Shown here: positions 37,953-62,389 of the stretch, piece by piece
How positions within the stretch are numbered: the first letter of the stretch is position 1
How the letters are laid out: every line of letters begins with the position of its first letter
Origin: Acholoe squamosa
Lineage: Eukaryota; Annelida; Polychaeta; Phyllodocida; Polynoidae
Assembly (NCBI GenBank): GCA_949317995.1
Contig: OX439044.1
Coordinates: 23,508,733 to 23,572,732 of the forward strand
Reading direction: 5' to 3'
Length of the DNA stretch: 64,000 bases
Position numbers and translations under genes: made by a program
The notes under the pieces: generated by a model
Databases searched by the model: none
What the model was told of the DNA's origin: nothing
What the model saw: only the letters and a program-made list of their open reading frames with translations

Positions 37953-38009
37953 GGTTTTTCTCTAATATATTTGAGAAACCCATCCTGTATGATAACGAGG
38001 CTCTATATG

Positions 38010-38082: not shown

Positions 38083-38190
38083 GCTGCTTTCCTACAATGT
38101 TTTGGCACCCACGACCCTGCAACCATCATTAAAGGTTACAGAAATAGGAAGCAACAGCCATATGAAATCGTAGAGCAATACCTGGCTGAC

Positions 38191-39889: not shown

Positions 39890-39891
39890 TC

Positions 39892-41097: not shown

Positions 41098-41113
41098 ATT
41101 TGGCACCACCAAG

Positions 41114-41988
41114 ATGGATTTCTTGGGATTTTCTCTAGACCAACATGGTGTGTTACCTTCCCCAGACAAAATCTGGCCAATCAAAACCTTTCCCCCACCT
41201 AAGAACATTCATGACCTTAGATGCTTCAATGGTTTGGCACAGTTTTACAAAAGGTTCATAAAAGGTTTTGCTCATATCATGAAACCCCTATATGAGGCCA
41301 CTAAAAGCACCTTTAAATGGACCACAAGCTGTCAGGAAGCCTTTGAGAAAGTCAAAGCCTCGATTTGCACTGAAGCTGTACTCAAATTCCCTGATTACAG
41401 TAAACCTTTTGTTATTTTCACCGACTGGGAGCTGTGATCACACAGGTGGACGACTATGGTTTCTACAGACCCATTGAATTCGCAGGCAGAGGTTTGACCC
41501 CACAGGAAACCAGATATGGAATAACAGACAAAAAACTACTGGGCATAGTCTTTGCAGTAAAAAAATCCCACCACTACGTGGATGGAACTCACTTCAAGGT
41601 CTACTCTGACCACACCGCCCTAGTTTCCCTCTTCAACAAAAAAGAAAATATCACAAATGGGAGACTAACCAGGTGGGTGGACACAGTCATGTCTTACGAT
41701 TTTGAAGTAAGATACCTGCAAGGCAGAGCCAATCTTGTGGCAGATTTCCTCTCCAGGAGGACCTACCCACCAAGCTCTGATGACCCAATTCTCATTAGAT
41801 CAGAAGGGAAAATCATACCCATCTCTGACAATACCATGACTAAGGTTTTCAGATCCAACGAGCCAGTACCCAATCACCCAATCCAGATGGGACCTCCCAG
41901 ATCAATACTAAAAGGAGGCAAAATCTGGGAAAGCACAGGCAAACCACCAAAAGGTGGTTTGCCTGTGCTTCTGAAAGAAATTACATAG
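41114..41988 (+). pseudogene. pol: element B RT thumb/connection and RNase H
   Basis: 41114-41437 encodes MDFLGFSLDQHGVLPSPDKI through FNGLAQFYKRFIKGFAHIMK and the start of RNase H (FVIFTD). A frameshift near 41430 leads into 41434-41988 with FAGRGLTPQETRYGITDKKL, VYSDHTALVSLF and YLQGRANLVADFLSRR, the RNase H core and end. The first RNase H catalytic Asp (FTD) is in one frame and the rest in another. Confidence 0.8.
41931..41970. repeat. perfect 18-bp hairpin with AAAA loop in element B pol
   Basis: AAGCACAGGCAAACCACC (41931-41948), then AAAA, then its exact inverse complement (41953-41970). The two sides of this hairpin belong to different coding frames: the RNase H frame before it, and the basic integrase-leader frame after it. 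Confidence 0.85.
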
Positions 41989-43560: not shown

Positions 43561-44438
43561 CACAGAAAAAAATAATGTTCAAAATCTTAGTCAGATGTTA
43601 GTCAAAAAGGCTAACTTTCTAACAATACCTAGTCAAAAGCACGTGCCTAAGTGTCCAAGTTTTTCTTAGTCAAATACGACTAACCATTAGTCAAAGTGCC
43701 CAACTTGCCTTGGCTTGCCTGATTTTGACTAAGATTCCTCAGTAGTTTTGACTAAGTATGGAATCTAATAATGGTGAGTGTAAGCTCTGTATAGGATCCA
43801 CATCCCACAAATAATTATCTCATCATTTAGGAAGCATACATGTAGAATGCCTCACATCATTTTCATTAGAGCCCCGGAGTCAATTACTCTGGGTTTCCCA
43901 CAAAGAAGCAGATACATCTGTGGATATTTTACTTATCTAGATTCCCACAGTAAAGGTGTAATTATCTGTCTACCTGGTTCATTTAACAAATCATTAAACT
44001 ATTTGACATATTTTGCCAAGCTTGATGTTATATTGAATTGTGAAAGCCTCAAAATTATACAGCACCTGAAAATCACCATCATTTTGACATCCATCGAATA
44101 GTTTATGGTACACAGCCACCAGAAAAATCCTGTTTCAAACCACGCTGCCACCTGGTGTGTAAAGGCAATACTATGCCAATATAGCTTAGTTAAAGTCACT
44201 AAGAGATCTTAGTCAAAGTGACTAAGTGACAGTGACTAAGATAAGTTAGCTTGCCTGAAACTCCCATCAGATACCTTATTCAAGATTGTGGTTGGAGAGA
44301 GAAACTGATTTGGGTAGTCAATGTGACTCAAATAAACTAGACATTGTTAGTCACACATTAGTCATATGTACTAACTAAGATTATTTGGGCGTTTTGACTA
44401 AGTAAAGTTAGACTGACTAACATGGATTTTTTTCTGTG
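43561..44438. mobile_element. non-autonomous CACAG-ended DNA transposon with subterminal TTAGTCA repeats
   Basis: The termini are CACAGAAAAAAAT and the inverse ATTTTTTTCTGTG, with ATGTTAGTCA just inside. The 2-bp CA flanks both sides (43559-43560, 44439-44440). Many copies of TTAGTCA/TGACTAA in both orientations cluster in the outer few hundred base pairs, as transposase-binding subterminal repeats do in CACTA-like and related elements. The interior has no transposase. It interrupts the integrase C-terminal domain of element B, and the coding frame resumes immediately after the right CA. The superfamily is inferred from termini and duplication length. Confidence 0.8.
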
Positions 44439-44963: not shown

Positions 44964-45321
44964 TGTAGTTGTTCGAATCAATGTCTTGACTAGTTCGAAG
45001 TAAAGACCAGACAAGGGATCTCGGGTTAGTGCAACTGGCACGTATTTATTACGGTATATGGTTTACATCTACCTCGAAGTGTACTGCTTAACTATAGTGT
45101 AAGCTCAGGTAAAAGTGGTCCGACTGCGTCGACAGCTAGAGCCAGACTAATGCCTTCCCCGGCCCCAGGTAGGAGCTGGGACCAGGTGAACAGTGCTGCC
45201 ACCTACCCGCAGATACCAGGGGTCGAGGAGACCTCTAGTGACTACCGGTGATGGGCGCACCGCTCGAAACGCCCTCTCGAGGAAGACGCTCACACTATAT
45301 CATGATCTACGAGCCCCTACA
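44964..45321 (-). repeat. element C 3' LTR (left on the plus strand)
   Basis: On the minus strand it begins TGTAGGGGCTCG and ends AACTACA, so 5-bp inverted ends TGTAG/CTACA are visible. AATAAA on the minus strand (45045-45050) is the likely polyadenylation signal. It matches 62032-62389 over the full length. Confidence 0.93.
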
Positions 45322-45333
45322 CTACCCCCACCA
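45322..45333 (-). promoter_or_regulatory. element C polypurine tract
   Basis: On the minus strand TGGTGGGGGTAG lies directly before the 3' LTR start TGTAGGGG. This is the expected plus-strand primer position. Confidence 0.75.
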
Positions 45334-46414: not shown

Positions 46415-48058
46415 CTACATCGAGGCTCCCAAGTCTGTCTCCATCACCATCTCACCGGAGTTGGTTTCTGGATCGGAGTCCAGACTTATCAGGTTGTGGA
46501 CCACTGGGGGTGGGTCAGGGGCTGTGGCCGCAGTGGTCGCCTCGGGGATAGGGGTTAGGGTTTTGGTCTGTCTAACCGTGGTGGCAGTCGGGGCAGTGGT
46601 AGTGGCTTCGGGTTCCCTTCCGGGTCCGGTTGGGGGTGTACCTGCGCTGGCAGAAGGTCTCGGGGTAAACACACTCATGAATCCAAAAGATTCGATGTCC
46701 GCCTCGAGCTGTCTGGCCTCCTGCAGCTTGCCCTGGAGCTTCTCGAACGCGCTCTCTGCAGTGCCGTCCCAATCTTTCATGAAACAGCCGAACACTGCCA
46801 TGAATCGAACATCCTGGTGGTCGTATTGGCTTCTCAGCTCCTGAAGCTGCGACTCGTATTTCAGCTTCATGGCCTTAGCCTCGTTTTCATGCTGGAGCGA
46901 GGCCCGAAGCTGGTCTCTTGCCTGTCCTTGCATGTCTTGTGAGATCCGGGTTATTTCCCGTCGCTGGATCTCATGCAGACATTCGAACACACCTTCGGTC
47001 ACGCCTCGAAGGTATCCGGTGGCTTGGCTGATATGCCTCTCTTGCCACGCCTGGAATACGTCGGCCTGAATATCACAGGATTCCTGTGTCGGGTTTTTGA
47101 TGTAATCATCGGGGTCCTCCTGTTCGAAGTTAGATTTCACCAAGTGTAGCACATTGGTGGTCCTCATATTTCTTACTGGAGGCGTCGGTACAGGGGTCGT
47201 GTGTATGTCTGAACCACTCTCATAAGCGGAGCTCGAGGTGGCAGTAGCTCTCGGGGATGGGGTGGCAGTGCTGGTTTGTCGAGACGAACCGACTACCGCC
47301 CCACTCTCATCAATGGTTAGGCCTCGCCCCCTTCAAACCTCGGGGAGAGGTTGACTGGGGTCTTTTAGCACCAACTCTCTTCCTGGTCGCTTTGGATCCA
47401 CAGGTCGGACCCGTCCGCGAGCAGAGGTGGTAGCAGGAGTAGCTGGGGGACCCATAGACTTCGGTTTCCCTGAAGGCAGTAAGGTCTGGGATTCGGGGCC
47501 TGGTTTCTGGGTGTCAGACAGAGCGGGGAACTCATCTGGTTCGGCTGCCTTAAGCCTGCGGAGTAAGGCATCTTCCTCTGGGGTGCCCTGGTAGCGTGGA
47601 GTAGACTCCGACTCACCCCTCATCCAGTCTGAGTGGGAGAGGGTAGTCCGCCCCTCGAACCAGGTCTGGTGGTTACCAGTCGAGGTCCCTGCTACGGGTC
47701 GGTAACCACTCGAGCTTAGGGGCGAGACATGCTCCATGCTCGTGAGGTCTCGAGATGCAGCACCCAGGATCGTGCTAGGATCGGGGGATCTCTTCTTGTG
47801 GTTGGGGGTCGGGGCTGGAGATTGTGACTCCGACCTCGGTCGCTTGGCGTCACGAGTTCGAGGGTCACCACCAGGGTGTGGTTGTGGTTTCCCATGTCGG
47901 TCCACTGCGTCAGGGTCCCTTCTCTGGACTTTGACAAGCCAGTGCATTTCTGCTGACATGTCAAATCGATGGGAACGCACGTTCTTGAGGAAGTAGGCGT
48001 CCTGCTTCCCCTCGACCGAGTGACAGAGGTGGTCAGTTCTCATAGTGATCGAAGCCAT
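46415..48058 (-). CDS. element C accessory ORF 4 (about 547 codons, one internal TGA)
   Basis: Two frames, 48058-47333 and 47167-46415, lie in the same phase, and the 55 codons between them are open apart from a TGA at 47333-47335. The N-terminal part starts MASITMRTDHLCHSVEGKQD and soon becomes Pro/Ser/Arg-rich with a KRPRSESQSP patch. The C-terminal part has a long helical, probably coiled-coil region (QRREITRISQDMQGQARDQL, LKYESQLQELRSQYDHQD) followed by a Thr/Ala/Pro-rich tail. No signal peptide, transmembrane segment or zinc motif is visible, so it does not look like an envelope. I do not recognise the family. The TGA fits CGA decay. Confidence 0.65.
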
Positions 48059-48097
48059 AGTAAGACTTGGGAGTCTTTACTGTGTCTCCGAGCGACG

Positions 48098-48882
48098 CTA
48101 CCCACACGCGATAAAATTCTGCGGGCCGGAGTCTTTTTTCAGGATTTTCATCCATTCCTCGTCGTCACTCTGGCCGTCGCGATTGGTGGCCGGAGGACTC
48201 GAGTAACTGTCAGTGTAACGCTGATAGTCCATGAAGCATTTCGGGTGTAATCAGGGAATCCAGAGTGGGCATTGACCCACTTGTTCAAGCTGGATTCGTC
48301 GGGAGCGTCTTTTAACGGTTCCTCCAACGAGTCGATATTTTCCAGCAGCTGCCGGCTCATTTCGGCGACCTGCCGGTCTCGGTCCCCATTGCCTTCCTCC
48401 TGAAGCTCTTCCTCCTCGACCGCAGTGCTACTAACGGGCTCGGGGGGTAGAGGGGTCACCTTTCGAGAAGTTCTCGTTCGGGTGGATCTAACTGGGGAGG
48501 AGGCATCCTCCTCCTTCGTGCTCTTTCCACTTCGAGTTCGGCTCCGCGAGCTTCGAGACGAAGTCGAGGCTGCAGAGTCGTCGCTCTCTTCGGCTTTCTC
48601 TTCTACCACCTTCTTTTTGCGGCGGCTCGTCTTTGGTTTAGCTTTGGGTTTGTCCGTAGACTCCTTCTTAGCTTTCTCCACGTCTCTCTTTAGTTTCGTT
48701 CTGCGCTTCATAAGGTCCTTGCGCTCTGTGTCGATGGCTTCTTGGCAGGCATCAAGCTCCTCGAGGCTCATCTCTTTCACAGTGGTTACTTTGGTGGAGT
48801 AGCAAGCTCCACCTTCCATACTCGAGGCAGCGTCGGGGATTTTGCTAGCAGCATCCCCGTCGCGAGCTGTCTCGTTTGCCAT
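48098..48882 (-). CDS. element C accessory ORF 3 (coiled coil, charged, frameshifted end)
   Basis: The ATG at 48882 opens a frame starting MANETARDGDAASKIPDAAS. Residues about 35-75 form a strongly charged heptad-like helix (MSLEELDACQEAIDTERKDL followed by MKRRTKLKRDVEKAKKES). A Lys/Arg-rich and then Ser/Arg region comes next (RSSRSRTRSGKS), which suggests nucleic acid or nuclear association. The listed end at 48148 is unlikely. About 48228 the neighbouring frame becomes the protein-like one (SDDEEWMKILKKD) and runs to a TAG at 48098, so a 1-base deletion is inferred. Function unknown. Confidence 0.6.
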
Positions 48883-48958
48883 TCATCGCTCTTCCTTTTT
48901 CGAGCTCGGGGTCTGCTAACAAAGCATCTTCTTCTTCACGGACAGGGGAGTTCTTCTG

Positions 48959-49487
48959 TTAATCCGACATGAACACAAAAGTGCATTCTCAGGGCGTTCC
49001 TTGTGGAAGGAGTACTTCGGGGGAGTGGACGCTTGGCAAGCGCTCCTCGAACCCAACTAGGCCATACAACAGCAGGTACGCTGTCTGTGACCTAATTCGG
49101 TCGTCCTCGCGGAGGTTCACCTTTAAGGCCCAGGTATTTCGGTGGGCAATATCGGTTTTTACCTGTGACCGTCCGGATAAATCCTTTGGTCACATTCACG
49201 TACCTGATGGCTGGTGGTCGGTCGGTGAAAGTCACGGGGACTTCGATGATGACTGAAGGAGTAGTTCCCTCAGTCGTACTCGGGCGTGGTGTCCTGGGAG
49301 CAATCAGTTCAGCACCTTTAGGGATGCTCAGGGTATCTGGAGTCGAATCGGGAAGAGACGGCTCCATTTCGGTGGTGTCCATCAGCTTAACTGCTGGACT
49401 TCGGGGTGCCTCGTCTTGGGCTCGAAGTGGGGTTGGGTGCCCATCAGGATTGGCCGTTACGGTCGCCACCACCTCCAACTGAGCCAT
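48959..49487 (-). CDS. element C accessory ORF 2 (frameshifted)
   Basis: The ATG at 49487 follows the candidate leader intron. The N-terminal half is Pro/Thr/Ser-rich (MAQLEVVATVTANPDGHPTP). It then reads VTFTDRPPAIRYVNVTKGFI, which has the feel of a folded strand-rich domain. In an A5 run near 49160 the coherent reading moves to the next frame (WALKVNLREDDRIRSQTAYL, LYGLVGFEERLPSVH). That frame passes one TGA at 48989-48991 and ends at TAA 48959-48961. The total would be about 175 residues. I cannot assign a family. Confidence 0.55.
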
Positions 49488-50026
49488 ATTTCGAGCTCAG
49501 ACGGCTCAGGGGATTGTCCTCCTTTGTTCAAGAACAGAAGGAGTCAATATTAGTCAGTGGAAAAGGAATTCTGTCACTATAAGTGGCAGAGGAAACAGCG
49601 GCACGTCTTACCTCGGTAAGACGGTTCGCGTGCTGTGAGCGATATTGGAGGCACAACAAGCGAGGCGGAACCAATGCGCATGCGCCGCTGCACTGCGCCA
49701 CTCTGGTACCCCGCTCACTAGCGCCCCCCTTCCCGCTCGTGGCAGGCGTCCGTACTACCCCGGATAACCAAGGTTCGGGGTTGGTTTTCTCCATAGGCCG
49801 TTGGTGGGACTACCCCCTTCACTATTCATTTCAACAGGAGTTTGGCAGAAGAACATGTAGCATCATGCGTACACGTCAGACAAGCTGTCTGCCACCCAGA
49901 GGTACCATGAATAGGTTGGTAATACCCGTCGTGGTCGTATTTCGAATCATGGCCGAGGTATCTCAACCTCCAAACATATAACAAAAAATGTAAACAGGAC
50001 TATACACTTGTTGTGATTTCGGAACA
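49488..50026 (-). promoter_or_regulatory. leader/promoter-like gap before element C accessory ORFs 2-4
   Basis: A 539-bp non-coding interval separates the AT-hook-like ORF from ORF 2. Its middle (about 49640-49745) is GC- and CpG-rich with a CCAAT-type ATTGG. It ends in what looks like a small intron. This layout suggests a separate transcript for the accessory genes, either from an internal promoter or by splicing. It is an inference from sequence layout only. Confidence 0.4.
49522..49611 (-). other. candidate 90-bp leader intron in element C
   Basis: On the minus strand: donor CCGAG|GTAAGA, branch-like CTGACTAAT about 38-30 bases before the acceptor, pyrimidine-rich TCCTTCTGTTCTT, acceptor AACAAAG|GAGG. 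The ORF 2 start codon follows 34 bases later. The sites are good by eye but unproven. Confidence 0.4.
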
Positions 50027-50350
50027 TTAAGTAACGGCAGTCCGCCCAGCAAATCTGGGACTGCGCCTCACCTCTTTTTCTTTGTTTTTCAACCGAGAAT
50101 CTCGAGAAGGTCCGGTGGAAGGTGCCGATGTTTTCCCCCTACCTCGGATTCTCCGTTCCACCAAGACAATTTTATCACGATTAGGTTTTAAATTCGTGTC
50201 AGTGTCGACCTTCTTGGGTCGTCCTCTCTTTGGCTTTTTCTCAACTGCTATTTTGCAAGGTCGGCCTCTTTTCCTCTTCGGGGCCTTTCCCTTCAATTTC
50301 CTTGATAGCTCATTAGTTTCCATTAGGATCTCGTCCTTCTGTTCATTCAT
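50027..50350 (-). CDS. element C accessory ORF 1, AT-hook-like basic protein
   Basis: The frame starts MNEQKDEILMETNELSRKLK and contains KRKRGRPCK and KPKRGRPKK, two GRP cores flanked by Lys/Arg as in AT-hook minor-groove binders, plus RRIRGRGKTS. Its ATG (50350-50348) overlaps the integrase TGA (50349-50347) as ATGA. That implies coupled termination-reinitiation or a frameshift fusion onto integrase. A DNA-binding tail on or beside integrase could steer integration or compact the DNA. No lesion is visible in its 107 codons. Confidence 0.65.
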   Translation of the reverse strand: MNEQKDEILMETNELSRKLKGKAPKRKRGRPCKIAVEKKPKRGRPKKVDTDTNLKPNRDKIVLVERRIRGRGKTSAPSTGPSRDSRLKNKEKEVRRSPRFAGRTAVT

Positions 50351-52279
50351 CTGGAAATTTCCTCACACTCGGAGTTGGCGGCATCCCATCCCCTCCATTT
50401 CCTTAATCTACACACGTTAGACTTATTTATTGGGCCTGTGGCCAGACTCATAAGCATAACTGTGTTTTCAGATATGATTCGGGTGACCATGTGAGGTCCA
50501 TCCCAACTCGAGATTAATTTCTTGCACCTTAAAGGTTCATGTATTCTAAACACTCGGTCAGGCCTCCCTAGCCCACTTAAAAGGGTCTATTTCTCCTCTT
50601 TCCTATCCCCTCGGGATGTCGGGCTTTCCTAGCCCACTTAAAAGGGTCTATATCTCCTCTTTCCTATCCCCTCAGGATGTGTGTGGTGCACATATGCGCA
50701 GGCACTGACACATTCTTCTGTTAGATTATCAACCTGTGAAGCACGGGATAGCCACTTAGTGCCGCTAAAGTGCTGTAAAACACAAATCAATCAATCAATA
50801 AATAAACACTCGGTCACCCACGCTAAACTGGTGTGGCTTCAGGTGGGTATCATACCCAATTTTCTGCCAATTTGTGTTATTTAATAGCTCATTTCGAACT
50901 ACTTCATAAGCTCTCTTAAATTGATCTCGTAGGGATTCTACAAACATCACCGTACATGGGGCTACGGGGCTCACCCCTATAACACCATATACGAGATCTG
51001 CAGGCATTTTAATATCTTCCCCGAATACTAATAGATTGGGGGAACAGTTCGTTGCAGAGTGTACAATGCTATTATAAGCATGTACTACAAAATGACATTG
51101 CTCCTCCCAGTCGTCTTGGCAAGAATTTACCAAGGGTTTTAGAACTTGTACCAATGTTCGATTGAATCTTTCTACTTGACCATCAGACTGAGATCTGTAT
51201 GGATTAGTTCGAGTTTTACAAATGGCCAAAAAGTGGCACATTTCTTGCCATAGGTTGGACTCAAATTCTCGTCCTTGGTCACTGTGCATCATTAATGGTG
51301 CACCTAAGTGTAGAACCCATCCTTTCACGAAGGCGCTAGCGCAGGTGGCTGCCTTGTGGTCAGGTAAAGGATATACTCGAGTGTACTTAGTATAGTAGTC
51401 AGTCACTACCATCATACAAGTGTTTCCCCGAGGTGTGGGTTCGATTCCACTGATGATGTCAATTGCTACTCGAGCAAAACGAACGCCAAATAGCTCTTGC
51501 ACCAGAGGTATCTTTCCCATTCCAGGACCAGGCTTATTCTTACTGCATTCGGGGCAAGTCATTACCCATCTTATGATGTTGTTGTGCATCCCTGGCCAGT
51601 AGTATCTTCTGGCTAGGCGTTCTAAAGTTCTCTTCTTCCCGAAGCGTCCGCTAGTCTTATGTCCGTGACAATAAAACATAATGTCTCGTCTTAGTGACAT
51701 GGGTATCACTATCTGTAGGACCTTGTCCTTAGTAGGACAGGTTTTCCATCGACACAGTAACCCGTCTTGAACTTCTAGCTCGGTCCATTGGGCTAGAAAT
51801 TTGCAAGTTTCTCTGTCTTCGAGGGACAATGCCGGCCGTTCGGGCTTGGCATTCTTATTCAGGAAAGAAATTACTCTCTTGATAGCGGGATCGTTTTGTT
51901 GGAAATGTTGGATGGTTTCTGCTGGCCATTCTATAACATTTTCCATGCTGGCGCAAGGTAGCAGTTTGGACTGTCTAGTTCGAACCGTTGCAACTACCGC
52001 GTTGTGGGCCCCACAATCATCACAATCGATTTTCTGGCACTTTCTAAAGGGCCTCCGGGATAGGGAGTCCGCATTAATATGCTTCGAACCCGGTCGATGT
52101 TGGATCTGGCTATGCTCCAACCCAAATTCTGACAGGTGTGCCAGCCAACGGCCAATCATTCCTTCGGTGTCCTTAAAATTAAGTAGCCACCTCAGGGACG
52201 AGTGGTCAGTTCGAAGAGTAAAATCGGTACCCCATAGGAAGTGTCGAAACTTTTTGGTATACACCACCACAGCCAGCAA
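50347..52279 (-). pseudogene. pol: element C RNase H and integrase, split by a SINE
   Basis: From 52279 the frame encodes most of RNase H (FTLRTDHSSLRWLLNF, HRPGSKHINADSLSRR). Integrase follows: a zinc-binding region ending TCPEC, then the DDE core with Asp in ARVAIDIISGIEP, Asp in MMHSDQGREFESN and Glu in SDGQVERFNRTL. At the Q-F-S-V-G-D-R-V strand of the C-terminal domain a SINE (50561-50803) interrupts it. The domain resumes at 50553 with KLISSWDGPHMVTRIISEN, a GPY-type module, and ends at 50347. The start of RNase H lies upstream in a shifted frame between 52280 and 52400. Confidence 0.85.
50561..50803 (+). mobile_element. SINE inserted in element C integrase
   Basis: A 13-bp duplication AAACACTCGGTCA flanks it (50548-50560, 50804-50816). 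The body has two tandem copies of TAGCCCACTTAAAAGGGTCT plus TCCTCTTTCCTATCCCCTC, then GTGTGTGGTGCACATATG. It ends GTGCTGTAAAACACAAATCA followed by (ATCA/ATAA)n, a typical SINE-type tail. The first part matches, inverted, the SINE-like repeat at 2849-3031. Confidence 0.8.
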
Positions 52280-52317
52280 CTCATGTTTAGTGGTGCAATA
52301 GTTTCATTGTGCCCTAT

Positions 52318-53404
52318 TCAAAGTGTTACTAGCAAAGGCAATTGGTACTTCGACCCCGTCCTGGACCTGCGACAGGGCTGCACCAATGCTATCATTGCTA
52401 GCGTCGGTATGAAATGGTCATCCGCAGTTGGATATTTAAATACTGGTGTGTTAGCAAACAAATGTTTTATTTGCTCGAAGGCTGCGTCTTGTTCATCTCC
52501 CCAGGGAAAACGTTCCTTTGCTCGACCTGGGGTCCAATGTGCTAGCATTTGCAAGGGGTAGCTCACTTTAGAATAGTTTGGGAGGAAGTCTCGATAATAT
52601 GAACAGAACCCGAGGACGGATCTTAATTCCTTCGCACCTATGGGCTTCTGCCATTCGGACACTGTCAGGAGTTTTTCAGGGTCGGCTTTTACGCCGTCAG
52701 GAGTTATTATGCGACCAAGATATGTAATAGATGATTTAAATAAATTACATTTCTTAGCTTTTAACTTCAGACCATTTGCTAGTATTCTTTTCAAGACTAA
52801 ATTGAGGTTGTTCATGCAATCCTCGAAAGTCTTTCGAAATACTATAACATCGTCGAGGTACACTAAACAACTCTTCCAAAGAAGGTCGCTTAGCATTTCC
52901 TCCATCATAGCTTCGAAAGTGGCTGGTGCATTACACAGCCCAAAAGGTAAAACATTGTATTGGAATAAACCCATATGGCTCGAGACAGCTGTATCCTTAG
53001 GGTCCATCCCGATCTGCCAATACCCGGACTGAAGGTCCAGGGTACAGAAGTATTTGTTTCTTCCTAAGGAGTCTAAGGTCTCATCTATCCTTGGTAAGGG
53101 ATAGGAGTTCTTTTTAGTTAAGCCATTCAGCTTCCTGTAATCGATGCAAAATCGAATAGACCCATCCTTCTTTGTGGTCATACACATGGGGCTGGACCAG
53201 GGACTCATGCTAGGCACAATAACCCCTTTTTCCAGCTGTTCGAGGTTTTTGTTTCTCAGCCTCCACTTTCTTTTTAAGTGGTAATCTCCTATAATGTATT
53301 TTAAATGGCTTCGAATCGCCAGTGTCAATCGTGTGCAACACCTTGCTAGTGCGGCCTACCAGGCCCCCAGGTTTCCCGAAGGCATCATGGAAGGTAGCAA
53401 GCAA
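52318..53404 (-). pseudogene. pol: element C reverse transcriptase
   Basis: 53404-53210 holds the RT N-terminal lead (KVLHTIDTGDSKPFKIHYRR) in one frame, and 53328-52318 the rest in another. The sequence reads LEKGVIVPSMSPWSSPMCMT, SIRFCIDYRKLNGLTKKNSY, FCTLDLQSGYWQIGMD, LPFGLCNAPATFEAMM and the catalytic LVYLDDVIVF, then YLGRIITPDGVKADPEK. The active-site residues are intact. The C-terminal part slips frame at the RNase H boundary near 52400. Confidence 0.85.
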
Positions 53405-53407
53405 AGC

Positions 53408-54294
53408 TCAAAGCCTTTCTTTCTCTGAATTTTTCCTCAGGGAAGAATCATCAACTAATTTTCTTAAATCATCTGGTAATCCTCGGACTGCGTCCTCAGG
53501 TAGCTCAGTTCGAAATTGAGCTTCGGAGACATGTTCGGTCAGGAACATATCACCAATCTTCTCGTTTTTTCTCAAGTACACAGGTTTTTGTCCTCTGTTC
53601 ATGATCGGGACTACCGTCCACGATCCGTTTCCCACCAGAGTGTCAACAGAATCTAGCTGTAAACTAGATAATACTTCAGAATTAGGTTCGAAAACAGCAT
53701 TCGAACCTCGAAAAGCATTGTTCGAGGAACACATAACGTCACAAGTCATTCCAGATGGAATTTTCACAGTCTGTACCATGGTGGCTACCGAGGATACATG
53801 TCTCAATATACATGGGATCTCGCAATTGTATGGTTGCTGAATCTTCAGCATCCCGAACCGGTGATCCAACACAGCACCGTACAAGCTTGCGAAATCCAAA
53901 CCGATTATTCCATCGTCACTTATGTCGGCTATGGTAGGGTTCATCACACGTAGCCCCCCATTCCGATCTGTATGAACGTCTTACCAAAAGTCTGCATCTG
54001 GCTACCGTCGGCCGTGCAAGCATTAACACCAACAGGTAGTGTTTCATGGTTGCCGGACACCAGATTGAAGAATTTTCTCGAGACACACAAATGGCTGGCA
54101 CCTGTGTCAATCAAAAATTCCCCAGTCCGCCCCTTCACCGATGCAGCGATGTACCATCGTTTCCCCCCCAAAGGTGAGGAGTTCTGTGCAAATCGGAGTT
54201 GATCCTGAGAGTCACCGATCTCCCATCCGAAACCCTTCAGGAAGGTTACACACGGATGGTTCGGGGGGAGGTGTGCCGCACTCACACGCGTCAA
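53408..54294 (-). pseudogene. pol: element C protease
   Basis: 54294-53944 carries the aspartic protease active site in EFLIDTGASHLCVSRKFF, with CTADGSQMQTFG after it. The domain continues in a shifted frame from 53947 (ISDDGIIGLDF is the ILG-type strand) to 53408, followed by a protease-RT linker. The two frames overlap by four bases, which more likely marks an indel than a design. Confidence 0.75.
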
Positions 54295-54563
54295 CTCAAC
54301 CCAACCTCCCTCTTCTTTGACGTAGGATTGCTCCTTCGGGTTCTGACCTTCCTCTGTCCCTACCCCGTCGAAGTCCCCGGTTCGGACTGGGGTGAGAGGA
54401 TCCTACTCACATACCAGTCCCCCAGAGGGTATTGACTCTTGTACTAGCTCGGATTCACCAGTGGTGGCATTTTGGCAGATTTTTGAATCACGGATCACAT
54501 CCTTTGCCACAGATGCGACCCTCTTTAGTTTTCTTCCTCCTTCTTTTCTTCTACATAATTAAC

Positions 54564-54791
54564 TCAGGATAGCACAGGCTTCGGGGCTGTACACTCATGA
54601 GCGTAATGCCCCATTTCTTGACAACAGTAGCAGCGTAGTCTGCTCCGATCTACTCTCCGTCGTTCAGGTCTGGCATACATAGTTTCAGCAAAAGTTTTCA
54701 TGAAATCCTCCATCATTTTCTTCATATCCAGAGGTTCAGGTGGAGCAGGGGCTCTCGATAGAGGTTGTCTTGGGGGCCGACTAACAGCCAT
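54564..54791 (-). CDS. gag: element C nucleocapsid zinc knuckle
   Basis: The frame contains CYCCQEMGHYAHEC, a C-x2-C-x4-H-x4-C knuckle, preceded by an Arg-rich PERRRVDRSR. This RNA-packaging motif ends Gag. It is separated from the capsid by about 250 bp with shifted frames. Confidence 0.8.
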   Translation of the reverse strand: MAVSRPPRQPLSRAPAPPEPLDMKKMMEDFMKTFAETMYARPERRRVDRSRLRCYCCQEMGHYAHECTAPKPVLS

Positions 54792-55040
54792 TTCAGTAGT
54801 TCGACTGTCTGGGCTGGGTCTTGTTTCCCCTCAAGCTTCATTAGCGCTTCGGTTATATATCCGTCGAGGAATATACTTGCGCTTAACATCTTTCTTTACT
54901 TGTACTGCGGAGATACTACCGTCCTCCTCCTCGATCTCAATGATCTCGAAGTCATTGTCTGTTGTTTCAGTGTATGTCGGTTGGTGTATTCCCGACATGG
55001 AAGCCGTACTAGTATTAGTACTCGCACAAACCTTGGTATT

Positions 55041-55790
55041 CTAGGTTTTCATCTCCACTTTTCCTGCCATGAGGGTCTTCTTTACTGTCCAGCACTCAAT
55101 CCCTTCAAAAAGGTCCATCAGGGTAGGTTTTCTCCCTTTCCAAGCATCTAAAGCTACTTGCTGCTGATCTTCATCTCGAAGTCCATGTACCAATTGTGGC
55201 AACAAGTCGTTCAGGAAATATTTATTGGAAGGATTGGTTCCTAGCCGTGCCCTCTGTAACAGGGATAGCAACTCATACCCGTAGGCTCGAAATGATTCTT
55301 GTGGTTTCTGCATTTGCTTCTTGAAGAGCATGAAAGGGTCTTCACTCACTAAATTGTACAGCAAAATGCTGGCAATCTCGACTAGCTGTTGGAAAGTACC
55401 CCTCTCGAAGTATACTTCGTTCCACTTTTCAACGGCTATCCGGCCTTGGCCATGTTTCAGACATCAAATCAGGTGAGGTAATGCCTCTTCGGGAGTCCAT
55501 GCGTTGCACCTCATATCATCAGTGAAGTTCGAGAACCATTCTTTCCAGGTTTTCACACCCTCGTAAATCTTAGGCAGGATGGCTTGTCGCCTAGCTGCGT
55601 TATTTGTGCGTACCAATTTCTGACATTGGTTGACACTCCATTCTCGGATGGTCTCCTCACTGTGTGCAGTGTTCGAAGTGTTGGCTGACTGATTCAGCAT
55701 GTCTTCTAACACACTGCTTCGGGATCTGCGCCTCGAAGTTCCTCCCGTGGTGCCACCAGCCCCTGGAGGGGGTACAGTCGGTCCTTGGGT
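55041..55790 (-). pseudogene. gag: element C capsid part of gag
   Basis: One frame from about 55790 through 55464 and on to 55041 is broken only by a TGA at 55464-55466. It includes YEGVKTWKEWFSNFTDDMRC, LYNLVSEDPFMLFKKQMQKP and YFLNDLLPQLVHGLRDEDQQ, with the helical layout of a Gypsy capsid C-terminal domain. It is cut off from the N-terminal Gag by the LINE inserted at 55797. The TGA again replaces a codon where CGA is plausible. Confidence 0.75.
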
Positions 55791-56159
55791 AGAACTTTTT
55801 TTTTTTTTTTTTTGGACTAGCTCATTGCGTTAATGAACTGTCAGGTTCATTTATGTAACGCTATAGAGCCGACCAATTTTATTTATATTTCAAACAGATA
55901 CCAAACAGTTGAAGTAAATATAGACTCCACATAATCAGACATATGTCATTATGTACAATAACAGTAAGGAAGCAGGCAAGTGTGTCAAATCAATCACATA
56001 GTATTTGTTGAGATATATATCAATATGACACAAGAAACACATAATACAATCAAATGATCATCAATGATATAATATTATATAATGATGAAAATATGCTGAT
56101 CACATAAATAATATTTGGAGCGGCGCGGTGACTACACCGTCTCCATCAACCTTTGTTCC

Positions 56160-59032
56160 TTAGTTATATCCAACCTTTAGCCTTGATCTGAGGTTTTTTA
56201 ACTTTTTAACCTCATTCTTAAATTTAACTTTTGTGGTAGCCCTCTGAACCTCCTCAGATAGTAGGTCCCAGAGGACTACACCCCTGTACCATGGCGATCT
56301 TTTATAATGGCGAGATATACTTCTTGGCAATTTAAAACGTATCTTATTTTGCGATCTTGTATTATATGCATGACCATGATTTATCTGATCCTTGGATTTC
56401 TTATACATCAAACTTAAAAGTAACATATCAAATCTTTGTTCTAATTTTTCCACTTTACAGATGACATGTAACTCATCAACACTATATTTAACAATATTGC
56501 ATCTAAGGCAAATTCTCAAAGCTCTATTCTGTAAACGTTGTAATGCCTTTAAACCTTCCTCATTACAACTAGTACTTATTCAATAATCGGCCGGATGGTA
56601 CAACAATATATTTTTATGCTTTCTTCTTGTGTGAGATATTTCCTTAATTTAGCAAATCTAAATAATTTATTACAAATGTTTCTTTTAATAAGCTTAATTT
56701 GTTTGTCAAAACTTAACTTACTGTCTACTGTAACTCCTAGGTAGGGAAAAAAACTTACAGTTTCTACTCTGGTACCATTTATTACAATATCTGTATCTGG
56801 ACAATTTTTCAATTTGTGAGCACTACAAAACCACATAAATTTTGTTTTCTTTGGATTAACAGTCAACTTGTTGTGAAATACCCATGTCTTAAAGCGTTCA
56901 AGATCATCATTTAACACTCTCATTACATCTTGGGGTGTTTTCGCTGCATGATATAAAACAATGTCATCTGCATACATTATAATTTTGCACTTGTTCAACT
57001 TTTTAATCACGTCATCTATGTATAAAACAAACAACAGGGGGCCTAAAACAGACCCTTGTGGGACACCATATTTGATTTCAGATTCTTGAGAGAGATTATT
57101 GCCATAACTAGTTCTTTGTTTGCGGTTTTTTAGATAACTATTAAACCAGAGAAAGTTATTTTTGCTGAAACCTAATTTGCTAATTTTTTCCAGAAGTCTA
57201 ACATGGATTACACTGTCAAACGCTTTAGTAAAGTCAATAAATAGGGCCCCTGTTATTAAACCATCATTTCGATACTCATATAGATCATTAACAAAGTCAA
57301 AGGTGGCATCACCTGTACCACTACCTTTCTTGTAACCATATTGCTCATCTGAAACATTATCGTGATCTTTCATGGCACAACTTAAATAATAATACATTAT
57401 TTTTTCAATAATTTTTGAGGGCATTGGCAATAGCGAAATAGGCCTCCAATTCTTAACTTGTGATAAATCTCCATCTTTGGGTAATGGCTTGACCAATGCA
57501 GAAGCCCATTTGACAGGAAAACCACCACTATCAAAACTTCTCTGAACAAGAAAAGTAAATTGATCTAGCAGGCATATTATTGCACATTGTAGTATATCAC
57601 CTCTGATCCCCTCTATTCCGGATGATTTATTTTTATCAATCTCTTTTACTGTATAATAGATATCCCAGGAATTAATCTTTATATTTGATTCAGAGAAAAT
57701 TCCACCCTGAATGATTTCCTCTATACTCACATTATTATCCATGTCACACTGTACTTTACCAACAGAAGCCACATGTAAGTCTTTTCCAATATTGCAAAAG
57801 TATTGATTAATATATTCACAAGCAGTTTTGGATGGGACCTTAACACCATCTACATGGTGCTTCATATCTGGATAAATCTCAGACCCATTACCCTTAAACA
57901 TGTTATTAATATATTTCCAAAAACTCTTAGGATTTCCTCTACATTCATGTAATTCTTGCATAATACCACCAATTTGATTAGCTTTTATTTTTTTCCTAAT
58001 TTTTCTCCTGCAATCTTTAATAGCTTGCTTCTCTTCATCACTTTTATTCACCTTATACAACCTTAACCACCCTTCCCTCTCAAAAACAAGATCCATTACT
58101 TCATCATCTATCCAACTTTTTCTAGTTTTTTTAACTAATCTCTCAACAAAGGGATGATATTTATCCAGATACTGATTAATAGGTGTTAGGAACATGTCCC
58201 ACAGCACATCAGTACTCAAATTTTTATCATAATACAATGTCCAATCACAAGATTGCAGGAAATCTTTGAAATTACTTTCTTTAAAATTCCTATAATCACG
58301 GCCCGAATAAGTTGTTTTAGTATACTTGTAATTCTCACGGCCCTTACAGCCAAATACAGGAATGTGATCAGAAATGAATGCTTCTACCGTACCTGCATCA
58401 GTAATGTTAACACAATTTGATAATACATTGTCAATACAAGTACCACTAAAGGGACGAGTAACCTCATGTACCAGAATTTTCCATCCTAAATCTTTACATA
58501 ATGACCTAAAACTCTCACAGCTTGCATCAGTATCATCAAACATATTTAGATTAATATCACCTAATACCCAAGTCTCATGTCTCCCTTGATTATCATTATA
58601 TTCAAATCCAGCTACCTTCTTTAGAAAAGTAAGAAAATTTGGTACATTGGTATTTGGTATTCTATAAATAGATACTATGAGCTGTTCTTTCTCACCCGGT
58701 AGACATAGCATAATAGCAATACTTTCAAAATCAATCGATTGAATAGTCAAATCATTTACAATGCTAATATATCGACATAGACCAGATCTACAACTAAGGC
58801 CTACTCCACCACAATTCTTACCAATTCGATCATTTCTATACAAAATACAATCAGGTATATTTATAATTCCCTCTGGTGAAGCAGGCTTAAGCCAGGTTTC
58901 ACATAAACAAATTATATCACTACGTTTCAATAACTTGTATATCTCTTCATGTTTGTCTTCAAAACTACGACAATTAATTGAAGAAATCACCAGCCCCTTA
59001 CTGTTGTTAAATTCCTCAATACAAAGTACCAT
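56160..59032 (-). CDS. LINE ORF2, endonuclease and reverse transcriptase
   Basis: The ATG at 59032 gives 818 codons to 56576. Residues 1-220 form an apurinic-type endonuclease (SSINCRSFEDKHEEIYKLLK, LCETWLKPA, WVLGDINLNMFDD, FISDHIPVFG). RT follows from about 440 (NWRPISLLPMPSKIIEKIMY, ALFIDFTKAFDSV, KYGVPQGSVLGPLLFVLYID, MYADDIVLYH). The stop at 56576 is not the natural end. A small deletion shifts the frame, and 56560-56160 continues the family C-terminus (LQRLQNRALRICLRC, KSDQINHGHAYNTRS-type basic region). Catalytic residues all appear intact, so this is a young copy with one late lesion. The element would reverse-transcribe itself at a nicked target. Confidence 0.88.
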
Positions 59033-59539
59033 TACAAATAATAATGGGATAATAATGATGCCATCTCATTAGGTAATATACAAGGTGAGATACATTAACA
59101 ACAACAGAAAAGAAAGCAATGTCCAATACCAGTATCATCATACAGTATTTACAAAGTCTTCTACCACAAATTATCCTCGTAGTAGAGGTGACTGTTATAA
59201 GCAGTCTACTGTGTGTTCAACTATTGCTTACAACAGGTTAAACCCCCAGCCCCCCTTACACTTGACTATACGGTGGTAAACTTATCAGGGGTATCACTGG
59301 GGTTAGTGGACTTAGTACACAACAAAAAGGGGCAGTGTCCTAATCCAAAAGAATTTTGAATAGAGAAAAATGATTTAGCACATTCAATTAATATGAATAG
59401 AAAATTTAACAATGCTTTCATGATGACACTGTCAAGAAAAATGTGAAAAAAAGGCAAACATCCATTTCCGAATCAGTAGACATATATCAATAATGCAAAG
59501 CCTGTTATTTAATTTAACACTAACATATACAAGTAATTA

Positions 59540-60319
59540 TTAAAAATCATCATCAGCATCAGCATGATCCCTGTTTGGATTCAAACCAAGTGCTAGGTCA
59601 AGGTCAGTGTCTGTGTATTCAACACAAAAGTGGTGAAAGATCTTAACTACCATTGCACGTACCATCTTCTTTTTGTGTTTCCCATTCTTGAGGTGAATGC
59701 CATCTCTCATATGACTAGATAAGTCTCTCTTATGACAGCTACCTGCTCTTGATTTACTCACTGCACGTTCAAATCGCATTGTAGGGAGCCCCTCAGCAGC
59801 ATTAAATGCCCTTATATTAGCATTAATTGTATCCAATGCTATGTCGAATTCCTCCTGAATTTTCGTACAATCCATTGTCCAGTTATTGGCCATAGCTAGG
59901 TTGGCTCCATAAATACATGTATAACAGGTTGGTTGATCAAAAGGCAAGTTATTCAGGGCAGTAGTTATAGACTGGAACCCATCGCGAACAGACTGATATA
60001 CCTCCTCCGCATATTCTCCTTGTAAGCCGTATGACTTGTGGCCCTGTCTGTCCTTCCTCATAAATGACATGTTGTTAATGCCAGCTGATATTACACATAA
60101 ATCAAATGGTCCATTCATCAGCAGTTCCTGAACCAACCTTCTTTGAATGTGTTCAAGTTTTGCCCCAGGCATGACAATAGTATGATGCAAGATACCTTTT
60201 TGTGGAAACACAAGGTCTAGTAGCTCTTCAAAACCTGCTACACGTGAATCTCCAATAAATAACACATTAACTCTATAGTACAACAGCTGATCCATAGTGT
60301 CATATGTCCATATGTACAT
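59540..60319 (-). CDS. LINE ORF1 with SGNH/GDSL esterase domain
   Basis: The intact 259-codon frame shows the hydrolase blocks: VLFIGDSRVAGFEE (block I with the nucleophile Ser), VISAGINNMS (block III, with the Asn), and RDGIHLKNGKH (block V with Asp and His). Esterase-type ORF1 proteins are known from CR1-like LINEs, where they are thought to act on membranes or lipids or to serve as an RNA-binding scaffold. There is no RRM or zinc knuckle. It lies upstream of ORF2 on the same strand with about 500 bp between them, and its composition matches ORF2. Confidence 0.8.
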   Translation of the reverse strand: MYIWTYDTMDQLLYYRVNVLFIGDSRVAGFEELLDLVFPQKGILHHTIVMPGAKLEHIQRRLVQELLMNGPFDLCVISAGINNMSFMRKDRQGHKSYGLQGEYAEEVYQSVRDGFQSITTALNNLPFDQPTCYTCIYGANLAMANNWTMDCTKIQEEFDIALDTINANIRAFNAAEGLPTMRFERAVSKSRAGSCHKRDLSSHMRDGIHLKNGKHKKKMVRAMVVKIFHHFCVEYTDTDLDLALGLNPNRDHADADDDF

Positions 60320-60619
60320 TCCCTTTCTATCCCTAATGCTATGTAAGCTCTATATAGCCCAGATATATATAGCATGAGACATAGTCCTACTAACAAATGG
60401 CACTTGTGCACAGTTGGCTGGCGCGGTAACTACACCAGTCACTTTAATTAAGGGTATACAGTCGCCTCCAAGATCACCTATTTACAATGCATAACCAATG
60501 GCTACCCCTACCCTCAGGACGTCACAGATTTATCATTGTTTGAAACACTCACTCTCTGCACTAGATTTACCATCAACTTGATGCACTACCCCCTACCCCA
60601 CCTTGGTTCCCTGTGCCCA

Positions 60620-61100
60620 AAGGTTCAGAATCATCTACAGAATGATCATCATATGATAACTCGAAGTGGCCCTCCTGTCCATATGCATTGTTGGGTTCAT
60701 TCTCTTTATGTGGTAAGTCAGTGGCGACACTGAATCTTATCCTCCGTTTTTCAGGTTCAGTTTGCCTGGGTTCATGTGTGGGGTCATAGACACCATCGTC
60801 CCGAACATGGACGTTGGCATTATCATTTACGAATGGATCGTATCGGTCTGGCTTCTTTAAAGCTTCAGCTGGCGTCGATGTCGCTAAAGGTGTATTTCCT
60901 TTTACGAAAGTAGCGCCGGAAGGTATGTCGTTATTAGACATTTCCTGGTGATAAAGTATATCCAGTTGTGTAACTGATACACTCGTGTCGGTTTCGAAAG
61001 ATTTATCTTCCTCTTCGGGGCATGTTCTGGCAGTTTGATCACTGTTCTCTATTCCCGACACATATGTATCCGTTTTGTCAGGTTGGCTATTTCGAGACAT
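60620..61100 (-). pseudogene. gag: element C gag, second N-terminal frame
   Basis: The ATG at 61100 starts a frame (MSRNSQPDKTDTYVSGIENS) that overlaps the end of the coiled-coil gag frame by 52 bases. It is rich in Asp, Glu, Ser and Asn, probably disordered, and runs into the LINE at about 60600. The overlap may be a frameshift junction within one Gag or simply an indel. Codon style (frequent TTCG) is that of element C. Confidence 0.5.
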
Positions 61101-61819
61101 AGCTCTTGCTGCTTCAAGAATAGATCTTGATTGCTATCTTTCATGGACTCCATTACGTCCTCGTTTTTCAAGATGCATTGATCTCGGATCTCTAGCAGCT
61201 TATTTGCCTCGTATTTATATTGTTCCATTTCGGCTCTTATTTGCTTGGCCTCTTTCTTTAATTCAAGATTCTTGATGGTGGAAGTAGCTTCCTGTTCCTC
61301 TAGATCAACTCCTTGTCTAAGCTTTTCATTTTCCCACTCGGCTTTAGCAAGTTCGAGTTTCCTTTGAATGACATATGTTTGTTGTTCGAGGTCGCGATTG
61401 ATTTGCTCTTTCAATTCGGTTCTTTCCTCGAGTTTCTTCATGTCGTTCATCATTCGTTGTTTATCGGTTTCATACTGGTGATATTGTTTCTCCAGATTCC
61501 TAAGTCTCAGAACTTTTTGTTCAGAGTCTTCTAACTTTGGTAAACCTTGGTATAGGCGAACTTTATTCATGGCGTCGATGCTCAACTTGGCCTGTTCGCA
61601 CAAGTATTCTCCTGCCGACTCAGTAACTTTCTTCGAACCTCCTATGTCGAATACCGAGACGTCTACACCGTCTAAGGATCGACGGGGGTTCGCTGTTCTC
61701 GTTTCTGCTCGAGCCGAGGCTGCTCGTTGAGCATCTAAAGTCATCATCATAATTGGTGTCGATCTTTCTGCGGAATCGGTACTTAGTCTGTATGTATAAT
61801 TCGTGACTGGAGCGGGCAT
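61049..61819 (-). CDS. gag: element C gag N-terminal coiled-coil protein
   Basis: The ATG at 61819 lies about 200 bases after the primer-binding site and opens 256 codons. After a short N-terminus (MPAPVTNYTYRLSTDSAERS) the residues from about 100 to 250 are a long heptad-patterned helix (VLRLRNLEKQYHQYETDKQR, ELKEQINRDLEQQTYVIQRK, LELKKEAKQIRAEMEQYKYE). This is a strong coiled coil that should drive Gag multimerisation. It is intact as read. Such an extended coiled coil is unusual in Gypsy Gag. Confidence 0.7.
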   Translation of the reverse strand: MPAPVTNYTYRLSTDSAERSTPIMMMTLDAQRAASARAETRTANPRRSLDGVDVSVFDIGGSKKVTESAGEYLCEQAKLSIDAMNKVRLYQGLPKLEDSEQKVLRLRNLEKQYHQYETDKQRMMNDMKKLEERTELKEQINRDLEQQTYVIQRKLELAKAEWENEKLRQGVDLEEQEATSTIKNLELKKEAKQIRAEMEQYKYEANKLLEIRDQCILKNEDVMESMKDSNQDLFLKQQELCLEIANLTKRIHMCRE

Positions 61820-61841
61820 CTCTTCGGATTTGAGGTCTCAA

Positions 61842-62018: not shown

Positions 62019-62030
62019 GTCACGGCACCA
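62019..62030 (-). promoter_or_regulatory. tRNA-His primer-binding site of element C
   Basis: On the minus strand TGGTGCCGTGAC starts one base after the 5' LTR. It is the 12-nt complement of GTCACGGCACCA, the 3' end (with CCA) of animal cytosolic tRNA-His. It thus primes minus-strand DNA synthesis. Confidence 0.85.
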
Positions 62031-62031
62031 G

Positions 62032-62389
62032 TGTAGTGGTTCGAATCAATGTCTTGACTAGTTCGAAGTAAAGACCAGACAAGGGATCTCGGGTTAGTGC
62101 AACTGGCACGTATTTATTACGGTATATGGTTTACATCTACCTCGAAGTGTACTGCTTAACTATAGTGTAAGCTCAGGTAAAAGTGGTCCGACTGTGTCGA
62201 AAGCTAGAGCCAGACAAACGCCTTCCCCGGCCCCAGGTAGGAGCTGGGACGAGGCGAACAGTGCTGCCACCACCCTGCAGAGACCAGGGGTCGAGGAGAC
62301 CTCTAGTGACTACCGGTGATGGGCGCACCGCTCGAAACGCCCTCTCGAGGAAGACGCTCACACTATTTCACGATCTACGAGCCCCTACA
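62032..62389 (-). repeat. element C 5' LTR (right on the plus strand)
   Basis: Full-length match to 44964-45321 with the same TGTAG/CTACA ends. It is flanked outside by AAAG. It should carry the promoter for the genomic RNA. Confidence 0.93.

What the first reader, a model, noticed from the sequence alone, without database searches (positions are those of the whole stretch)
46415..50350. Ty3/Gypsy element with a four-gene accessory block downstream of integrase
Element C carries about 4 kb of open frames between integrase and the 3' LTR: an AT-hook-like protein, a strand-rich protein of about 175 aa, a charged coiled-coil protein, and a roughly 547-codon coiled-coil/Pro-rich protein. None has a signal peptide or membrane segment, so they are not an envelope gene. 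Ordinary Gypsy elements end soon after integrase. Each frame is protein-like and damaged only by isolated lesions, which suggests they were maintained until recently. This looks like an undescribed retrotransposon lineage with several proteins added after pol.
Basis: partly seen in the sequence, partly recalled or inferred. Interest (0 to 1): 0.9.

Follow-up and report, generated by a model that had tools for sequence, protein, structure and literature searches.

The report
Gypsy retrotransposon with large third gene
A family of jumping genes in an animal genome carries, besides its usual genes, one large extra gene that evolution has kept intact for a long time and that looks like a DNA- or RNA-binding helper protein rather than a virus coat, although what it does is not known.

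Summary
The open frames exist, but they are not four genes. Element C is a Ty3/Gypsy element on the minus strand. In open copies elsewhere in the same 1.48-Gb genome, the AT-hook frame is the C-terminal tail of pol, and the other three frames are pieces of ONE ORF3 of 1179 codons, about 540 nt downstream of pol. The window copy lost about 47 and 117 codons of it and carries frameshifts and a stop. A piece of ORF3 lies behind 63 of the 85 integrase matches scored; 6 fetched from the other 22 also carry it, 16 were not looked at. It evolved under constraint: substitutions shared by at least 3 of 30 copies give dN/dS 0.15, singletons 0.81; pairwise values are 0.09-0.12 in 15 copies. A second family in the same genome has a homologous ORF3 (26% identity, E 2e-72; one copy read). 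ORF3 has two C2H2-like Cys/His sets, charged stretches and a likely coiled coil, and no Pfam match above cut-off. Best guess: a nuclear, nucleic-acid-binding accessory protein working like CERV of Cer1. That function is inferred, not shown. No description was found in eight paper searches; Repbase was not available.

The parts
62032..62389 (-). 5' LTR of element C
   Evidence: pairs with 44964-45321 at 96.4% over the 360 bases aligned; AAAG outside both LTRs
62019..62030 (-). primer binding site TGGTGCCGTGAC, one base after the 5' LTR
   Evidence: read; match to tRNA-His recalled
60576..61837 (-). N-terminal part of gag: coiled-coil-like frame 61837-61052 and acidic frame 61133-60576, broken by a frameshift
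   Evidence: frames; copy L017 reads from this part into the capsid part without an insert (match, letters read)
55796..60580 (-). LINE inserted in gag (not part of the element): GDSL-like frame 60349-59543, endonuclease-RT frame 59065-56576, poly(A) at about 55796-55813; the high-coordinate end is approximate
   Evidence: Pfam (GDSL match below cut-off); lower TCGA density and CpG ratio than the element, and L017 without the insert
54567..55795 (-). gag capsid region and CCHC zinc knuckle
   Evidence: frames; no Pfam match above cut-off for the two capsid frames; identified by position and the zinc knuckle read
50816..54402 (-). pol: protease, RT, RNase H, integrase
   Evidence: Pfam: gag-asp_proteas E 1.2e-5 (26.2 bits, cut-off 28.2), RVT_1 1.3e-29, RT_RNaseH 2.3e-16, Integrase_H2C2 3.2e-19, rve 8e-10
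50560..50804 (.). SINE-like insert in the integrase, flanked by a direct repeat (AACACTCGGTC at 50549-50559 and 50805-50815)
   Evidence: read; part of it 94% identical to 2924-3031
50350..50548 (-). integrase C-terminal domain
   Evidence: frame; aligned in other copies
50027..50362 (-).
   Evidence: AT_hook E 0.039, below cut-off; in frame with integrase in L009, L010, L012; C-terminal motif in 10 of 120 relatives
49488..50026 (-). non-coding spacer between pol and ORF3, conserved beyond third codon positions
   Evidence: mean identity to L009 0.86, 20-nt bins 0.69-0.98, against 0.66 at ORF3 third positions; no codon periodicity
46415..49487 (-). ORF3, one gene, broken in this copy: pieces 49487-49095 (residues 1-131 of L009 ORF3), 49108-48896 (179-249), 48909-48244 (245-466), 48244-48113 (467-510), 48140-48045 (502-533), 48049-46430 (651-1179, with one in-frame stop)
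   Evidence: tblastn of L009 ORF3 against the window
44964..45321 (-). 3' LTR of element C; purine-rich tract just before it at 45322-45332 (read on the minus strand)

Best explanation
Element C is a broken copy of a multi-copy animal Ty3/Gypsy family with the layout LTR - long gag - pol with AT-hook-like tail - 540-nt conserved spacer - ORF3 (about 1180 aa) - LTR. Shown: ORF3 is one gene, is widespread in the family, evolved under purifying selection, and has a distant homologue in a second family of the same genome. Inferred: it works as a nuclear or nucleoprotein-associated accessory protein. The two C2H2-like Cys/His sets and basic stretches would bind the element's RNA or DNA, and the C-terminal helix-like part would make oligomers. 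I think it most likely helps the unspliced genomic RNA out of the nucleus and into particles, as CERV does for Cer1. It would be made from a spliced mRNA or by internal initiation, with the conserved spacer as the cis-acting part. Anatomy and selection: about 0.95. The RNA-export/packaging role: about 0.35.
For: One open frame of 1182 codons in L009-L011, and an open frame of 1182 or 1183 codons without a stop in the match around 24 of the 150 scored matches of the cc frame. A match to the cc piece lies within 7 kb behind integrase in 63 of the 85 integrase matches scored; 6 copies fetched from the other 22 carry ORF3 (987-1179 residues covered), with internal deletions or frameshifts. Changes shared by at least 3 of 30 copies fall 173/93/605 on codon positions 1/2/3 in ORF3 and 34/35/34 in the spacer; singletons in ORF3 fall 273/251/297. 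dN/dS of shared changes is 0.147 for ORF3 and 0.055 for the sampled part of pol, of singletons 0.81 and 0.65; pairwise dN/dS against L009 is 0.09-0.12 in 15 copies, window included. The eight residues of both Cys/His sets (C551 C556 H575 H580; C589 C599 H613 H618) are kept in 0.93-1.00 of copies and are identical in the second family. Spacer conserved beyond third codon positions. Analogue: CERV, whose C-terminal half comes from the frame between pol and 3' LTR of a Gypsy element; nuclear, with a potential leucine zipper and a possible C4 finger (PMC10309623: abstract, passages and one section read).
Against: No RNA or protein data: no splice, transcript or product was seen. ORF3 has no match above cut-off to a nucleic-acid-binding family (Pfam: best DUF1818, 16.5 bits against 25; HVO_A0114, 12.2 against 27.6, for the second family; none in NCBIfam or PHROGs) and no PDB sequence match up to E 1; the finger spacing is unusual. 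The spacer's paired changes exceed shuffles (11 against 5.0), but its folding z-score in L009 (-2.2) is no better than that of many coding windows of the same copy and the L017 spacer has +1.3, so an RNA element is not shown. The second family's spacer has a similar length (520 nt) but no detectable similarity. No CERV sequence was compared.
Confidence: 0.6

Rival explanations
1. ORF3 is a second structural protein: it coats the nucleoprotein or scaffolds the particle together with the long coiled-coil gag.
For: Strongest constraint in the coiled-coil-like residues 931-1115 (shared dN/dS 0.065) and in residues 521-680 (0.092); gag of this element also starts with a coiled-coil-like frame.
Against: No capsid-like match in ORF3; gag already has a capsid region and a zinc knuckle.
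Confidence: 0.2
2. ORF3 and the AT-hook-like pol tail act on host chromatin: they steer integration or counter silencing of the element.
For: AT-hook-like tail conserved in the clade; C2H2-like sets and basic stretches in ORF3.
Against: The tail evolves loosely in this family (shared dN/dS 0.53); nothing ties ORF3 to chromatin.
Confidence: 0.2
3. ORF3 is an envelope or fusogen substitute that lets particles pass between cells.
For: Sits where env sits; env-less elements can use other fusogens (PMC11952523, passages read).
Against: 1179 residues with only one marginal hydrophobic stretch (1.78); sORF2-like proteins are 63-107 aa with a transmembrane domain.
Confidence: 0.05
4. The block is captured host sequence, chance open frames or a gene of another element, private to this copy.
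For: Its G+C content (54%) is higher than that of pol (46%).
Against: Present behind integrase in other copies and in a second family; third-position bias of shared changes.
Confidence: 0.01

Closest known systems
Cer1 of Caenorhabditis elegans and its CERV protein (Ty3/Gypsy; PMC10309623)
   Same: Gypsy element; long frame between pol and 3' LTR that does not resemble ENV and has no obvious homologues outside its group; CERV has a potential leucine zipper and a possible zinc finger
   Different: CERV is 517 aa, shares its first exons with gag and is made from a 5-exon spliced mRNA; ORF3 is about 1180 aa, has an ATG at its own start and two C2H2-like sets; splicing untested; no sequence comparison made
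Bdelloid rotifer LTR retrotransposons with enzymatic ORF3 (PMC5408684)
   Same: animal LTR elements with a non-envelope ORF3, present in some branches
   Different: their ORF3 are GDSL esterases or DEDDy exonucleases; no such Pfam domain in this ORF3. The GDSL-like frame near element C belongs to a nested LINE
Sense additional ORFs of plant LTR retrotransposons (review PMC7264820)
   Different: plants; called env-like, some with transmembrane domains; Grande gene23, a nuclear protein, is antisense
Troyka LTR retrotransposons (PMC12440569)
   Same: LTR elements of aquatic animals, widespread in molluscs
   Different: CG...CG termini, 3-bp target duplications, in the majority one gag-pol protein, internal part at most 7.7 kb, no GPF/Y motif
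mdg1-group and other insect elements with sORF2 (PMC11952523)
   Same: env-less elements with a conserved accessory ORF
   Different: sORF2-like proteins are 63-107 aa with a transmembrane domain; in the mdg1 group upstream of gag, in some Lepidoptera downstream of pol

Membership tests
Ty3/Gypsy (Metaviridae) | pol order protease - RT - RNase H - integrase | tested here: met
   Pfam; the protease match is 2 bits below its cut-off
Ty3/Gypsy (Metaviridae) | LTRs with TG...CA ends and a 4-6 bp target duplication | tested here: met
   TGTAGG...CTACA ends and AAAG on both sides, read; no empty site was compared
Ty3/Gypsy (Metaviridae) | GPY/F motif in the integrase C-terminus | tested here: inconclusive
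   WDGPH in L009, WEGPF in L047, WDGPF in P0001; motif recalled, also named in PMC12440569
Gypsy element with an additional ORF between pol and 3' LTR (aORF) | extra ORF present in all or most copies and not in gag or pol | tested here: met
   63 of 85 by position, 6 of 6 fetched from the other 22; 16 not looked at
Gypsy elements with an envelope gene (errantivirus-like) | signal peptide and transmembrane anchor in ORF3 | tested here: inconclusive
   hydropathy only: one marginal stretch at residues 160-178; no dedicated predictor used
Troyka | CG...CG LTR termini and 3-bp target duplication | tested here: not met
   TG...CA and AAAG
CERV-like accessory protein of Cer1 | sequence homology to CERV | not tested
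   no CERV sequence was fetched
CERV-like accessory protein of Cer1 | product of a spliced mRNA, nuclear, needed for export of genomic RNA | not testable with these tools
   needs RNA and protein data
GDSL- or DEDDy-type ORF3 of bdelloid elements | SGNH hydrolase or DEDDy exonuclease domain in ORF3 | tested here: not met
   Pfam: no such domain listed up to E 1

The most novel reading that the evidence does not exclude
A clade of animal Gypsy elements, marked by an AT-hook-like pol tail ending in a conserved RRSPR...AVT motif and by an ancient ORF3 of about 1180 aa, has evolved its own protein-plus-cis-element system for exporting or packaging genomic RNA (ORF3 acting on the conserved pol-ORF3 spacer), independent of the Rev and CERV systems.
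Probability: 0.2. Interest if true: 0.8.

Novelty: new variant of a known kind. Interest (0 to 1): 0.55.

Why it matters
A large non-envelope ORF can here be followed over copies with dS to the reference of about 0.4 to 1.3 at dN/dS of 0.09-0.12, and into a second family at 26% identity. That makes it a testable case for how an intracellular retroelement gains and keeps an accessory gene. Both families have many open, equally scoring copies in one genome, which suggests recent activity, so transcripts and proteins could be looked for directly.

Tried and rejected
Four separate genes: rejected, because open copies have one frame. GDSL-like frame at 60349-59543 as a gene of element C: rejected, since it lies in a nested LINE. 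Troyka: rejected on termini. Spacer as a proven RNA structure: not upheld; pair counts were favourable, but a sliding-window control (25 shuffles a window) showed many coding windows of L009 and L047 to be as structured or more so, and of five further spacers four gave z of -2.2 to -3.5 and one +1.3. Promoter motifs and splice acceptors in the spacer: looked at by eye and with a simple AG/pyrimidine scan, nothing decisive; the bacterial promoter scan has no bearing. TCGA richness as a mark of the element: it separates the element from LINE, SINE and flanks in the window, but in L009 TCGA is only 1.11 times the expectation from its trinucleotides, so it may mostly reflect CpG content. Protein search with the C-terminal piece alone could not have found full-length relatives because of its length limit. 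The whole-ORF3 search scored the 7999 candidates sharing most words, none at E 0.001 or better, and is weak against relatives at 26% identity. Viral contigs: no relative of integrase or ORF3 found. Host identity: not settled; a planned test with the egg-lysin family did not complete.

Papers, as seen: PMC10309623 abstract, passages and section 9; PMC5408684 abstract and sections 3.3 and 4; PMC12440569 abstract and parts 1-3 of 5; PMC11952523, PMC7264820, PMC8220671 and PMC6238403 passages. Search listings. 'Not found in print' rests on these eight searches only.
Full report
WHAT IS THERE. Element C runs on the minus strand from 62389 to 44964. Its LTRs are 96.4% identical over the 360 bases aligned, begin TGTAGG and end CTACA in element orientation, and have AAAG outside both ends. 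TGGTGCCGTGAC follows the 5' LTR; that this fits tRNA-His is recalled. Pfam finds protease (2 bits below cut-off), RT, RNase H and integrase in the usual Gypsy order. Two insertions disturb the copy. One is a LINE of about 4.8 kb in gag, whose first frame is GDSL-like, below cut-off. Copy L017 shows gag without it, and the LINE's CpG ratio of 0.37 contrasts with 1.01 and 0.64 in the gag parts around it. The other is a SINE-like insert with a direct repeat in the integrase.

THE BLOCK IS ONE GENE PLUS A POL TAIL. The genome in which the window lies is held (1.48 Gb, 63 contigs). Twelve copies were fetched first. Of 85 integrase matches scored, 22 lie in a 1425-codon frame without a stop in the match. 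Against the L009 ORF3, the window copy lacks residues of about 132-178 and 534-650 and is otherwise broken by frameshifts and one in-frame stop.

IT IS A FAMILY FEATURE. The other 22 lacked one among the 150 scored. I fetched 6 of these 22 and all 6 carry ORF3, covering 987-1179 residues, with internal deletions or frameshifts. The other 16 were not looked at. L009-L040 were chosen because they match the third frame, so their having ORF3 is by construction and is not counted as evidence.

SELECTION. L009 served as reference; 30 other copies were compared, window included, after dropping 8 near-identical copies. CpG contexts and sites with fewer than 8 copies were left out. Changes shared by at least 3 copies, which should mostly predate insertion, fall 173/93/605 on ORF3 codon positions 1/2/3; singletons, mostly decay after insertion, fall 273/251/297. 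The spacer gives 34/35/34 for shared changes. The corresponding dN/dS values are 0.147 and 0.806 for ORF3 and 0.055 and 0.65 for the sampled part of pol. Read in the two wrong frames, shared changes in ORF3 give 1.75 and 2.76; in the spacer they give 0.98-1.06 in the three frames. Pairwise dN/dS against L009 is 0.09-0.12 for ORF3 in 15 of 16 copies tried (the sixteenth, L019, gave no value), the window at 0.12 with dS 0.73. The pol tail is much looser (0.53), as are the last 64 residues of ORF3 (0.54). The tightest parts are residues 931-1115 (0.065, coiled coil by eye) and 521-680 (0.092, two Cys/His sets).

A SECOND FAMILY. A search with P0004, a pol relative from an unnamed contig, brought up another family: 61 matches scored, 63-64% identical to P0004, 40 of them with the same score. 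One copy (L047) has a pol tail ending RRSPRLRSAVT and, 520 nt further on, an ORF3 of 1168 codons. Its integrase end and tail are 46% identical to those of L009. Its ORF3 aligns with the L009 ORF3 over most of its length at 26% identity, E 2e-72 with composition adjustment. The Cys/His sets, a DGDSDDEEWMK stretch and an EIQRRE stretch near the coiled coil are shared; residues 451-520 are the most alike, 33 of 68 aligned. In databases, 10 of 120 listed integrase relatives end in the same pol-tail motif, all with 58-81% identity to the query; 8 of the top 18 lack it, and by eye these end early or elsewhere.

WHAT ORF3 LOOKS LIKE. No match above cut-off in Pfam (best DUF1818, 16.5 bits against 25; second family HVO_A0114, 12.2 against 27.6), none in NCBIfam up to E 0.1, PHROGs up to E 0.01 or PDB sequences up to E 1. 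Two Cys/His sets, C551-X4-C556-X18-H575-X4-H580 and C589-X9-C599-X13-H613-X4-H618, resemble C2H2 fingers in order though not in exact spacing; each of the eight residues is kept in 0.93-1.00 of copies. There are Arg/Ser- and Lys-rich stretches, acidic stretches and a long C-terminal helix-like part (by eye). One stretch (160-178) is marginally hydrophobic. The reading as a nucleic-acid-binding, oligomeric protein follows from this and is an inference.

THE SPACER. The 540 nt between pol and ORF3 have a mean identity to L009 of 0.86, 0.69-0.98 in 20-nt bins with few gaps (at most 0.10 in a bin), against 0.66 at third positions of ORF3 and 0.71 of pol. So it probably has a function of its own, most simply in expressing ORF3 or handling the RNA. 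A consensus fold gave 11 pairs with changes on both sides against 5.0 in shuffles and 2-5 in slid versions, and the L009 and L047 spacers fold better than shuffles (z -2.09 and -4.35). But coding windows of L009 reach -4.5 and of L047 -9.8; the spacers give -2.2 and -4.8 in the same control, and five further spacers give -3.2, -2.2, -3.5, -2.7 and +1.3. I therefore do not claim a conserved RNA structure. The spacers of the two families are not recognisably similar.

HOW IT MAY WORK, AND RELATIVES. The nearest worked-out case is CERV of the C. [quoted passage not shown] It is nuclear, needed for export of genomic RNA, and has a potential leucine zipper and a possible zinc finger (PMC10309623). 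ORF3 fits that mould but is twice as long and has an ATG of its own. Rotifer elements have enzymatic ORF3s (PMC5408684) and plant elements have additional ORFs in the same place (PMC7264820), so a third ORF as such is a known kind. The mollusc survey PMC6238403 does not use the terms 'additional ORF', 'ORF3' or 'third ORF'. That the host is a mollusc is a guess from the genome's size and make-up and was not tested.

VERDICT. A real, selected, large non-envelope gene in an animal Gypsy family and at least one relative. It is one gene, not four. Function unproven. Novelty against print rests on eight paper searches, and Repbase could not be consulted.

Noticed in passing
55796-60580: LINE nested in gag of element C; its first frame (60349-59543) is GDSL-like (Pfam E 0.021, below cut-off), its second endonuclease-RT.
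   Followed up: partly
50560-50804 and 2924-3031: SINE-like repeat with a duplicated 61-nt unit, inserted in the integrase of element C with a direct repeat; a stretch 94% identical over 108 nt lies at 2924-3031 in the other orientation.
   Followed up: partly
36000-43700: Another Gypsy-like element on the plus strand (RT about 32% identical to that of element C), CpG-poor (0.24).
   Followed up: no
5003-9519: Compact Gypsy-like element: 108-nt direct repeats 99% identical about 4.4 kb apart, with an RT about 33% identical to that of element C between them.
   Followed up: no
16988-17099: Stretch 73% identical to one end of the element C LTR; possibly a remnant of a related LTR.
   Followed up: no
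12355-13365 and 17444-18014: Tandem arrays of about 119-nt and 32-nt units.
   Followed up: no
L014:1700-3316: This copy carries part of the spacer and the start of ORF3 twice in tandem (about 960 nt apart in the ORF3 matches).
   Followed up: no
L009 and L047: Many 520-nt windows of coding sequence fold much better than dinucleotide shuffles (z down to -9.8 in L047 ORF3); cause unknown.
   Followed up: partly
L047 (second family): 40 of 61 pol matches have the same score, which points to a recent burst of a related family with its own ORF3; only one copy was read.
   Followed up: partly
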